Assembly: GCF_003944795.1 (NCBI RefSeq)
Contig: NZ_RWBG01000001.1
Coordinates: forward strand, 1-64,000
Reading direction: 5' to 3'
Origin: Mangrovimonas spongiae
Lineage (GTDB): Bacteria > Bacteroidota > Bacteroidia > Flavobacteriales > Flavobacteriaceae
Length of the DNA: 64,000 nt
Position numbers and translations under genes: made by a program. Positions 3,401 to 55,743 of the stretch are shown piece by piece. Within the stretch, counting starts at the first letter, position 1. Every line of letters starts with the position of its first letter. The notes under the pieces were generated by a model that was not told where the DNA came from, did not search any database, and was given only the letters and a program-made list of their open reading frames with translations.

Positions 3401-3404
3401 AAAC

Positions 3405-3540
3405 TGCGTAGAACAACGTGTATAGCTCATTGCGGCTGAATTCCTAATCGGAATTCATTGCAATTTGCTATCTTTGGTTCTACAGCGGAAAATCCTCGCG
3501 GATTTCCCGCAACGAGCCATACACAAAACCGTTGTACACA
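3405..3540 (+). repeat. attC-like repeat R5
   Basis: Arms GTGTATAGCTCATTGC and GCAACGAGCCATACAC pair. The central GAATTCCTAATCGGAATTC palindrome and CGGCGGAAAATCC-type segment are shared with R12 (right half) and R18. GTTGTACAC (3531-3539) matches GTGTACAAC at 7486-7494. Confidence 0.85.
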
Positions 3541-3641
3541 AGCTATGGAAACCAGCCGCACAAACAGCACATTTGGTTTTTCCACTACTAAAGCCAACGT
3601 TTAAAAACCAAAAGAGCTGTTTTTAGCCAACACCGAATGAG

Positions 3642-49671: not shown

Positions 49672-50889
49672 CTAATTGATGTATTTATCTACTGCGTTAT
49701 CTAATTCACTACCTATTATTTTTGCATATACTTGCGTAATACCAATATCGGAATGATCCATTAATTTAGAAACGTGTTCTATACGCATACCATTGTTTAA
49801 TGCTCTGGTAGCAAATGTATGGCGGCTTATATGGAAAGATAAATTAAACGGTAATTCTAATTCTTTACCTATTCTACTTAAATACATATTACTTAACGAA
49901 ATTGCTCTATTGGTTATTAAACTTCTATGTTCTCTATTTTTAAAATATAACTCGTCAACTTTTGCAAATGGAAAAATTATATCATTTTGCTTTTGGTCTT
50001 GGGTTTTGTATTTCTCTAAAATACCAACCGCTTTTTGACCTATTTTTATACTGTGCTGTCTTTTGGTTTTTCTTATCGTTTTTGTGATTCTATGATTATT
50101 ACTATCATAGTTTTTCCATTGTAATTCGATAACATCGCCAAAACGTAACCCACCAGAAAAAACAGAAAAGATAAACATATCTTTGATAACTTGTGCTTTA
50201 TGTTCTTGTGGCACTTCTAAATTCATAAAAGCTTCAAACTGCTCTTCGTTTAAATAACGCTTTGTAGTCTTGTTTTTCTTTACTTTAAACTTTGTAAAAG
50301 GTGCAAGTTCATTAGATATTAAATCTTCGCTTTTGGCTTCTCTAAACATTAAGTTTAGGATTCTAAACGCATAATTTATAGTTGTGTTATTGTTGCCTAA
50401 TTTAGAACTGCAATGTGAAGCATAATTTTTTAGAGTTGTTGCTGTGATATCATCAAACATTATTTCACGATGCCCTATAAACCTTTCAAACTTTTCTATG
50501 TTGTTTTTATAGCTTCTATAAGTAGATAGTGTAACAGTATCTTTAAGCTTCTCGCATCTATCATAAGCAAACTCAAAAAAGTTAATTAAGGGTTTACCCT
50601 TAATAGCTTCTTTTATTCTTCTTGCTGATGTAGATTGATTTCTTCTTTCAAGGTCTGCAATCTCGCCTTCTGCATCTGCTATCTTTTTAGAGATGTACGC
50701 ATTTAGTCTTGTAGAGCTTTTATGATTCTTCTTGACTTTTTGCTTATCTTCATCCCATTCATTCGGTTGTAGTTTTACACTTAATGAAATGAATTTAGTT
50801 TTTCTGTTTTTGATTACTCGTAAATAAAGCGGTGCAAGTCCTGCTTTATCTATCTTGTTTTTTCTTAAAACTACTTTAATTGAAGACAT
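49672..50889 (-). CDS. Tyrosine recombinase (integrase) of element 2
   Basis: About 405 aa from ATG 50889 (MSSIKVVLRKN); a start at 50967 would run through the arm repeats and is less likely. It has an Arm DNA-binding domain typical of Bacteroidota (KAGLAPLYLRVIKNRKTKFISLSVKLQPNEW), a SAM-like domain and a catalytic domain with GGLRFGDV (R), HISRHTF (H..R), MDHSD (H) and QVYAKI (Y). The GGTACAAC repeats just upstream are probable binding sites. It mediates insertion at AACAATGTAT inside an attC-like repeat. Confidence 0.92.
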   Translation of the reverse strand: MSSIKVVLRKNKIDKAGLAPLYLRVIKNRKTKFISLSVKLQPNEWDEDKQKVKKNHKSSTRLNAYISKKIADAEGEIADLERRNQSTSARRIKEAIKGKPLINFFEFAYDRCEKLKDTVTLSTYRSYKNNIEKFERFIGHREIMFDDITATTLKNYASHCSSKLGNNNTTINYAFRILNLMFREAKSEDLISNELAPFTKFKVKKNKTTKRYLNEEQFEAFMNLEVPQEHKAQVIKDMFIFSVFSGGLRFGDVIELQWKNYDSNNHRITKTIRKTKRQHSIKIGQKAVGILEKYKTQDQKQNDIIFPFAKVDELYFKNREHRSLITNRAISLSNMYLSRIGKELELPFNLSFHISRHTFATRALNNGMRIEHVSKLMDHSDIGITQVYAKIIGSELDNAVDKYIN

Positions 50890-51071
50890 AAAACTCTGGT
50901 TTTTAAGCTGTGCAATTGGGTGCAACGTGTTACTAAGGTACAACAAAGGGTACAACAAACCTAACATTTAGTAGCATTTTATTGCATTAATTTGCATTAT
51001 CTAAAAACACAAAACCCTTATAAATAAAGGGTTTAAAAGCAATTTGATAAAAATGAGAGATAATACTATAT

Positions 51072-53921: not shown

Positions 53922-54401
53922 ATGAAAAAAACTATATTCTTAATTGGAATATTTCTGCTAATCGGAATTAAAATCAATGCGCAGGAATTGACTTGTGAAA
54001 ACTTTAAAATCGGACAATTTTATATTCCTGAAACACCTGAAATGGCAAAATATACAATCGTTGAAAATGACAGTATTTCAGAATTTTCACCAGAAAGAGA
54101 CAAAACGGTAAAAAAATACATTGTAATCCGAGAAAAAGGAACTCAAATAGAATGGAAAAACGGAATTGGAAACGGAAATCCTGAATATGAAATAATTGAG
54201 TGGATTGACAACTGTACATACCGACTGACTTATGACTCTTCAAAATCGGAATTGGACGAAGGGAAAAAATGGGTGAATGATAATAACGGAATTGTTGTCT
54301 CGAAAACCAAAATTGAAAATAAATGTCTGTATTACACAGCAACTATGACAACAAATGATGGACAAAAAATTTCGCAAGATGGAATAATATGCAAGGAATA
54401 A
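53922..54401 (+). CDS. Cassette 17: small secreted protein
   Basis: A 159-aa protein with a signal peptide (about residues 1-20, cleavage after INA). Three conserved-looking cysteines lie in the mature part (CENF, CTYRL, CLYY) plus a C-terminal CKE, so disulfides are possible. The mature domain is beta-rich. Similar DNA-recombination-unrelated secreted proteins of about 150 aa are common in flavobacteria, but I cannot name the family. The IS110 element has inserted into the repeat that follows. Confidence 0.65.
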   Translation: MKKTIFLIGIFLLIGIKINAQELTCENFKIGQFYIPETPEMAKYTIVENDSISEFSPERDKTVKKYIVIREKGTQIEWKNGIGNGNPEYEIIEWIDNCTYRLTYDSSKSELDEGKKWVNDNNGIVVSKTKIENKCLYYTATMTTNDGQKISQDGIICKE

Positions 54402-54406
54402 AATAC

Positions 54407-54418
54407 TATGCACAACAA
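54407..54418 (+). repeat. attC-like repeat R18, left stub
   Basis: Box TATGCACAAC and the next AA remain. The arm continues at 55621 with CGTGTATAGC after the IS110 insertion. Confidence 0.75.
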
Positions 54419-54444
54419 AGAACTGAGTTAAAAACCAAACAATT

Positions 54445-55410
54445 TTAGTTTAATTTAGAAACAAAATTCTCATCATAGGGTAATCCACTTTTCGCAACAG
54501 CAAAGGCTTGTTTGAGTAGCTTATTTGCTACTGCAATAAGCGCTAGCTTTTTACTCTTGCCCTTGGCTACCAATCGATCAAAAAGCATCTTACATGCCTT
54601 ATTGTATTTACAAGCCGAAAAGGCTGCTAAAAACAAAAGGTTACGCAATTTCTTGTTGCCTACTTTACTAATCCTACTGCGCCCTCTTACACTACTCCCA
54701 GACACTCTAATGGTCGGGGTGATACCAACATAACTACATAGTTGTGAGGCTGTTTCAAATTTCTTAAAACCATCGGTCACCACTATTAAAAATAAGGCTG
54801 TCTTCATACCTATTCCTGGTATGCTTTGCAACAAGGTTAGTTGATGTTGTTGATCCTCTTTTACAAGTTCTAGCAAGCGAGCTTCCAATACAGCCATCTC
54901 TTTGTTTAAATGATTTAAATCTCTCTGCAATGATTGGTAAACGACTGCTGAGGGAACTCCTAATGCCTTTTCTCCATGAATCTTGTTCTTTGTCGCAGTA
55001 CGCTTTTTCTGGTAACTATCCAACAACCTAAAGAGCTGTAAACATTCGGCATGTACCGAGGTCAAGGCATTGTACAACGGAACTTCATTCTGTTTACCAT
55101 ACGCACATATCGCTTTTGCATCACTCTTATCGGTCTTTACCTTAGCTAATTTCATCTGAATAAAACGTTTTATAGACAAGGGATTTACTACGGAGACATA
55201 AACGCCCTCTTTATCTAAAAATTGAGCTAATCGGTAATGGTAATAGCCCGTCGCTTCCATAACCACTAAAGCGGTTCTTGGTAAAGACTTTACAAATAAC
55301 CTAAAGCCTTTTACAATGTTGGAAAACTGAATATGACCCCCAGATTCACTGTAAACATCAAACACTGACTTACTAATGTCTATACCATAAATTTTTCTAT
55401 CTTTATCCAT
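54445..55410 (-). CDS. IS110-family transposase (DEDD recombinase)
   Basis: A 321-aa protein. The N-terminal RuvC-like domain has D11 (YGIDISK), E52 (VMEATGYYH) and D94/D97 (VKTDKSDAKA), the DEDD tetrad. A coiled-coil linker follows, then the C-terminal Tnp_20 domain (LLQSIPGIGMKTAL..VGITPTIRVSGSSVRGRSRISKVG), which contains the serine region used for strand exchange. The length is normal and the frame intact, so the element may be active. IS110 enzymes use a structured RNA encoded beside the gene to choose donor and target DNA. Confidence 0.93.
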   Translation of the reverse strand: MDKDRKIYGIDISKSVFDVYSESGGHIQFSNIVKGFRLFVKSLPRTALVVMEATGYYHYRLAQFLDKEGVYVSVVNPLSIKRFIQMKLAKVKTDKSDAKAICAYGKQNEVPLYNALTSVHAECLQLFRLLDSYQKKRTATKNKIHGEKALGVPSAVVYQSLQRDLNHLNKEMAVLEARLLELVKEDQQHQLTLLQSIPGIGMKTALFLIVVTDGFKKFETASQLCSYVGITPTIRVSGSSVRGRSRISKVGNKKLRNLLFLAAFSACKYNKACKMLFDRLVAKGKSKKLALIAVANKLLKQAFAVAKSGLPYDENFVSKLN

Positions 55411-55414
55411 AAGA

Positions 55415-55600
55415 ACTGATTTGGAAAGGACATTCTACTTACATTTCAACAACTTAAAATCGAGATCTAGGTCTCACAGAACTGAACGAAATCTTAGTAG
55501 AAAAAGAGAGAGGGTTATCATTGTTGTCGAAGTCAAGGCTTCACCGTGTATACTAACCTTATTTCTCTCTTTTGTTCTTTCTGATTTATACTCTAAATTT
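55415..55600 (-). ncRNA. Candidate IS110 bridge RNA
   Basis: Read on the minus strand, upstream of the transposase. The target-loop candidate (55520-55553) contains TTGTTGT (55521-55527), the complement of the left flank ACAACAA, and CGTGTATA (55545-55552), identical to the right flank at 55621-55628; the two are separated by a GAAG..CTTC stem. The donor-loop candidate (55478-55498) contains AGAACTGA, identical to the left end of the element (54419-54426), and TCTTA, the complement of TAAGA at its right end. The order (target loop 5', donor loop 3') matches described bridge RNAs. Ends of the RNA are not determined. Confidence 0.7.
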
Positions 55601-55620
55601 AATGGATTGTAAACTTAAGA

Positions 55621-55743
55621 CGTGTATAGCTCATTGCAATGAATTCCTAATCGGAATTCATTGCAATTTACTATCTTTCGGTCACGGCGGAAAATCATAG
55701 CTGATTTTCCGCAACGAAACCATAGTCAAAACCGTTGGTAGTA
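55621..55743 (+). repeat. attC-like repeat R18, right part
   Basis: Same arms and GAATTCCTAATCGGAATTC centre as R5. GTTGGTAGTA (55734-55743) opens the last cassette; only ACTAC (56507-56511) of its partner box remains. Confidence 0.82.

What the first reader, a model, noticed from the sequence alone, without database searches (positions are those of the whole stretch)
54407..55640. IS110 element targeting an attC-like repeat with a matching candidate bridge RNA
The 5' non-coding region carries, in one short segment, TTGTTGT (complement of left flank ACAACAA) and CGTGTATA (equal to the right flank), and in another AGAACTGA (equal to the element left end) and TCTTA (complement of the right end). 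Opposite polarity of the two guides and the order target loop then donor loop are as known for IS621-type bridge RNAs. The guides spell the conserved arm of the cassette repeats, so the RNA would send the IS to any such repeat.
Basis: partly seen in the sequence, partly recalled or inferred. Interest (0 to 1): 0.87.

Follow-up and report, generated by a model that had tools for sequence, protein, structure and literature searches.

The report
RNA-guided jumping gene targeting gene cassettes
This is a small mobile DNA element whose own guide RNA appears to steer it into the recombination sites that separate stored gene cassettes in marine and related Bacteroidota bacteria, and relatives in many species show guide and target changing together.

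Summary
The element is a 1202-bp IS110-group insertion sequence (window 54418-55619; transposase on minus). Joining its flanks restores AACAACGTGTATAG, a site that also occurs unoccupied elsewhere in this genome. The upstream 173-nt RNA folds as two stem/internal-loop/stem units. Across 41 homologues, 17 of 27 pairs show compensatory changes and 98.5% of cells pair (87.6% shuffled). The target-loop guides match the element's own flanks, and LTG and LT covary across lineages (7.1 of 9 matches; 5.1 shuffled). Donor guides covary with the ends: LE CTTAAG goes with RDG ..TTAAG, CCTAAG with ..AGG. In 56 of 57 homologues the right flank is TGTTR, the core box of an integron-like cassette; the 57th has AGTTA and a correspondingly changed guide. 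In 36 of 56 the cassette's complementary start lies nearby. The target arrays have attC-like hairpin repeats and lie near a distinct tyrosine recombinase that is not a canonical IntI. Bridge-RNA IS110s and attC-targeting IS1111s are known. An IS110-group lineage dedicated to flavobacterial cassette repeats, with guides tracking each host's repeat, looks like a new variant of a known kind.

The parts
54418..55619 (-). IS110-group insertion sequence, 1202 bp; in transposase orientation it starts CTTAAG and ends CAGTTCTT
   Evidence: joined flanks equal unoccupied cassette sites AACAACGTGTATAG; same ends in homologues; tandem RE-LE junction in L021/L105
54445..55410 (-). IS110 recombinase, 321 aa; D11, E52, D94, D97, S237 correspond to IS621 D11, E60, D102, D105, S241
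   Evidence: Pfam PF01548+PF02371; NCBIfam NF033542 209 bits over cut-off 140; phmmer to IS621 8wt6 2.2e-34 and ISCro4 9t56 1e-35; residues 66/66 conserved in homologues
55411..55583 (-). predicted bridge RNA, about 173 nt (ends not mapped)
   Evidence: alignment A1 of 41 homologues, consensus fold and covariation; no Rfam family
55502..55573 (-). target-binding loop
   Evidence: helices 1-3 of the consensus, 11 of 18 pairs with compensatory changes
55544..55552 (-). left target guide LTG, RNA 5'-UAUACACGG, matches left target TATACACGT
   Evidence: 42 unique LTG/LT pairs, 7.10/9 matches vs 5.07 +- 0.20 shuffled
55519..55527 (-). right target guide RTG, RNA 5'-ACAACAAUG, complementary to right target (T)TGTTGT
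   Evidence: changes together with RT in L037
55435..55500 (-). donor-binding loop
   Evidence: helices 4-5 of the consensus, 6 of 9 pairs with compensatory changes
55477..55486 (-). left donor guide LDG, RNA 5'-UUCAGUUCUG, matches the right end TCAGTTCTT
   Evidence: TTAGTT in both LDG and RE in Christiangramia elements and L106
55453..55459 (-). right donor guide RDG, RNA 5'-UUUUAAG, complementary to LE CTTAA
   Evidence: CCTAAG elements have RDG ..AGG
55620..55628 (+). left target (transposase orientation TATACACGT): L''-like arm of the interrupted cassette repeat
54404..54417 (+). right target (transposase orientation TGTTGTGCATAG..): R''-like end of the cassette carrying ORF 53922-54401
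   Evidence: complementary cassette start GTTGTGCATA about 510 nt away on the same cassette

Best explanation
It is an IS110-group insertion sequence. Its recombinase uses a bridge RNA encoded upstream of the transposase. [quoted passage not shown] The donor-binding loop reads the two ends of the element. By analogy with IS621, an excised circle recombines at the 2-nt core (positions 8-9 of the target), leaving CTTAAG...CAGTTCTT between L'' and R'' with no loss of target sequence. Shown by sequence: element ends, unoccupied sites, RNA fold covariation, guide/target and guide/donor covariation, repeated insertion into different cassettes. Inferred: RNA expression, circle intermediate, exact cleavage positions, and inactivation of the interrupted repeat.
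For: Recombinase homologous to IS621/ISCro4 with all catalytic residues kept. RNA fold: 98.5% cells paired against 87.6% shuffled, 17 of 27 pairs with double changes, covariation 0.355 against 0.139 +- 0.008, all slid controls at 0.09 or less. LTG/LT covariation over 23 distinct guides, 7.10 against 5.07 +- 0.20, maximum of 10000 shuffles 5.83; RDG/LE and LDG/RE co-change; L037 changes RTG and RT together. Right flank TGTTR in 56 of 57. Unoccupied sites in the same genome and in hosts with other repeat arms: ACATCTACC in G024, and 37 minus-strand sites in one Christiangramia genome, 34 of them exact matches to GCGATNARCCGTTGTTR. Identical copies in different cassettes, e.g. 4 in Polaribacter MSW5.
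Against: The 9th guide base often mismatches the target (LTG G, target T), and the inferred cores of target (GK) and donor (TT) differ, whereas IS621 uses a shared CT core; the core assignment is therefore inferred. A single-sequence fold of the window RNA is not significantly stable (z -0.74 to -1.29), so structural support is comparative only. The LTG/LT permutation does not remove relatedness. L071 sits at a poor match, and in L039/L044 the RTG is replaced by a hairpin.
Confidence: 0.93

Rival explanations
1. The recombinase itself reads the cassette repeat, and the matches in the non-coding region are relics of old ends or flanks.
For: The right target TGTTR is nearly invariant, so it gives little covariation by itself.
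Against: Left-target sequence differs between lineages and is followed by LTG; donor guides follow the element ends; L037 changes both RTG and RT; the guides lie in loops between covarying helices.
Confidence: 0.04
2. Element copies are spread by duplication or shuffling of cassette repeats by the array recombinase, not by their own targeting.
For: Elements sit inside cassette arrays near a tyrosine recombinase gene.
Against: The element separates R'' from L'' and so is not itself a cassette. Identical copies have different cassette ends on the RT side, and the repeat arms on the LT side differ too.
Confidence: 0.03

Closest known systems
IS621 / ISCro4 bridge-RNA elements (IS110 group)
   Same: Recombinase domains and catalytic residues, upstream RNA with target loop then donor loop, opposite polarity of guides, 9-nt LTG
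   Different: IS621 targets REP elements with a shared CT core (PMC11208160, PMC11208158). This one targets cassette repeats, and the inferred target and donor cores differ.
IS1111-attC group (ISKpn4, ISPst6, ISPa25)
   Same: RNA-guided insertion at one end of attC sites of integron cassettes (PMC11187229, citing Post & Hall 2009 and Tetu & Holmes 2008)
   Different: Those have the guide RNA downstream of tnp, reversed guide order and subterminal inverted repeats, none of which hold here; hosts and repeat sequences differ. The original papers were not held, so details come from PMC11187229.
Integrons (as the target)
   Same: Cassettes with complementary ends, hairpin-forming repeats, tyrosine recombinase gene near the array
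   Different: The recombinase lacks the integron-integrase score and the match skips the region of the IntI-specific domain

Membership tests
IS110 family, IS110 group | DEDD RuvC-like domain plus Tnp domain with conserved serine | tested here: met
IS110 family, IS110 group | long non-coding end upstream of the transposase | tested here: met
   209 nt upstream against about 27 nt after the stop
IS110 family, IS110 group | bridge RNA with two loops pairing to target and donor | tested here: met
   comparative covariation; expression not tested
IS110 family, IS110 group | circular intermediate with RE-LE junction | not testable with these tools
   a tandem RE-LE junction is seen in L021/L105 only
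IS110 family, IS110 group | core dinucleotide shared by target and donor | tested here: inconclusive
   target GK versus donor TT; cut inferred after K
IS1111-attC group | guide RNA downstream of tnp | tested here: not met
   RNA is upstream
IS1111-attC group | subterminal inverted repeats of 11-13 bp | tested here: not met
   best 11-nt match 73%
Integron (the target array) | cassettes with complementary ends and attC-like hairpin repeats | tested here: met
   23 of 30 cassettes in L180+L181; hairpin z -5.37 for window 3402-3545
Integron (the target array) | IntI integrase with its additional domain | tested here: not met
   array-side recombinase scores 186 bits under the 265 cut-off, and its match skips model positions 185-239

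The most novel reading that the evidence does not exclude
Flavobacteriaceae carry a widespread integron-like system run by a separate clade of tyrosine recombinase (about 400 aa, N-terminal extension, no IntI-specific domain). This IS110 group is its specialised parasite, whose bridge-RNA guides evolve in step with each host lineage's repeat.
Probability: 0.5. Interest if true: 0.75.

Novelty: new variant of a known kind. Interest (0 to 1): 0.55.

Why it matters
It gives a natural series of bridge RNAs with matched targets (23 distinct left target guides, several target families, one natural change of the right target guide). The base-pairing rules and core tolerance outside IS621 can be tested on it directly. 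It also shows that RNA-guided ISs reached integron-like sites in the IS110 group as well as in IS1111, and it marks where flavobacterial cassette arrays lie.

Tried and rejected
Junction placed after CG, or a CT core shared by both sides: rejected, because K varies only on the left flank and matches target polymorphism. A passenger gene between the transposase and RE in the Maribacter/Cellulophaga lineage: rejected, RE lies about 105-112 nt after the stop. Rfam match: none credible. Single-sequence folding alone is uninformative. Plasmid search gave two weak Hymenobacter hits only. Literature searches for flavobacterial integron-like arrays found none in the held library, although integrons are listed as detected in Bacteroidota.

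Full report
What is there. A 321-aa IS110 recombinase is encoded at 54445-55410 on the minus strand. NCBIfam calls it an IS110 family RNA-guided transposase, 209 bits over a cut-off of 140. It matches IS621 (8wt6, E 2.2e-34) and ISCro4 (9t56, E 1e-35) over nearly its whole length. The residues corresponding to the IS621 DEDD motif and S241 are invariant in 66 of 66 homologues (IS621 residues from PMC11208158).

Bounds and site. In transposase orientation the element starts CTTAAG and ends CAGTTCTT, window 54418-55619, 1202 bp. Joining the flanks gives TATGCACAACAACGTGTATAGC, and AACAACGTGTATAR occurs six times unoccupied in the same genome. A wider pattern, TATACACGNTGTTR, occurs eleven times. 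The base K before the element is usually T or G in homologues, and unoccupied sites carry the same polymorphism. The right flank never shows it, so the top-strand junction most likely lies just after K (inference).

The RNA. Single-sequence folding gives two stem/loop/stem units but is not more stable than shuffles. The comparative test is strong. Across 41 homologous upstream regions the consensus has five helices in two units, 98.5% of cells paired, 17 of 27 pairs with changes on both sides, and covariation 0.355 against 0.139 +- 0.008 shuffled and at most 0.09 when slid. No Rfam family matches.

The guides. LTG UAUACACGG matches the left target, and RTG ACAACAAUG pairs with (T)TGTTGT. LDG UUCAGUUCUG matches the right end, and RDG UUUUAAG pairs with CTTAA of the left end. 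Over 42 unique pairs LTG matches its own left target at 7.10 of 9 positions, against 5.07 +- 0.20 when shuffled (maximum of 10000: 5.83). Elements with LE CCTAAG have RDG ending AGG. Elements with RE TTAGTT have LDG TTAGTT. L037 has RTG changed to complement AGTT, and its right target is AGTTA. The polarity (LTG like the top strand, RTG complementary to it) and loop order agree with IS621 (PMC11208160).

The target. Anchored on the right end alone, the next five bases are TGTTG (37), TGTTA (19) or AGTTA (1). The following bases differ between copies. In 36 of 56 copies the reverse complement of this GTTRNNNNNN occurs again (9 nt or more) within the fetched flank, usually followed by what looks like a repeat end; shuffled controls succeed in about 1%. 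That is the behaviour of integron cassettes, whose two ends are complementary. In Christiangramia gaetbulicola (L180, L181) 23 of 30 consecutive cassettes show it (8 nt or more). A repeat folds as a long hairpin as a single DNA strand, z -5.37. Left targets differ between host lineages, and unoccupied sites with the same arm are found in those hosts.

The array recombinase. In the seven other genomes searched, the best homologue of the 401-aa recombinase at G000:C3:884-2089 lies within about 14 kb of a cassette site, an element copy or an element fragment. These proteins largely separate from XerC/D-like homologues in a tree, although two rows are unplaced. They resemble but do not reach the integron-integrase model: 186 bits under a cut-off of 265 for the own copy, and the match skips model positions 185-239. 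The array is therefore integron-like, but a canonical IntI was not found.

Activity. Four Polaribacter MSW5 copies are identical over 1142 bases in different sites. Pairs L005/L029, L064/L065 and L045/L046 are identical too. This implies recent movement.

Relation to known systems. Bridge RNAs are established for IS110 (PMC11208160) and seekRNAs for IS1111 elements that target attC (PMC11187229). The present element lacks IS1111 features: its RNA is upstream and it has no subterminal inverted repeats. I found no description of an IS110-group lineage aimed at flavobacterial cassette repeats, but the library is partial and ISfinder was not searchable.

Noticed in passing
G000:C3:397910-399135 (L002): The second copy in the genome is identical to the window copy over the first 150 nt (left end and target loop) but mostly 50-80% identical elsewhere: a mosaic, suggesting exchange of the guide module.
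   Followed up: partly
G000:C3:884-2089 (L125): Tyrosine recombinase of 401 aa with a roughly 110-aa N-terminal extension without Pfam hit, next to a cassette site; the next gene looks like a single-stranded-DNA-binding protein; homologues lie near arrays in other Flavobacteriaceae.
   Followed up: partly
L180, L181 (Christiangramia gaetbulicola): Array of at least 30 cassettes with near-identical repeats and complementary ends beside the same kind of recombinase.
   Followed up: yes
L021, L105: Left flank of the element is the right end of another copy (CAGTTCAA|CCTAAG), a tandem RE-LE junction.
   Followed up: no
L039, L044: RTG region replaced by a short CCCGA...TCGGG hairpin although the right target is still TGTT; possibly decayed or altered guides.
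   Followed up: no
window 49672-50967: Another tyrosine recombinase (Arm-DNA-bind_5) of the mobile-element type, distinct from the array recombinase.
   Followed up: no
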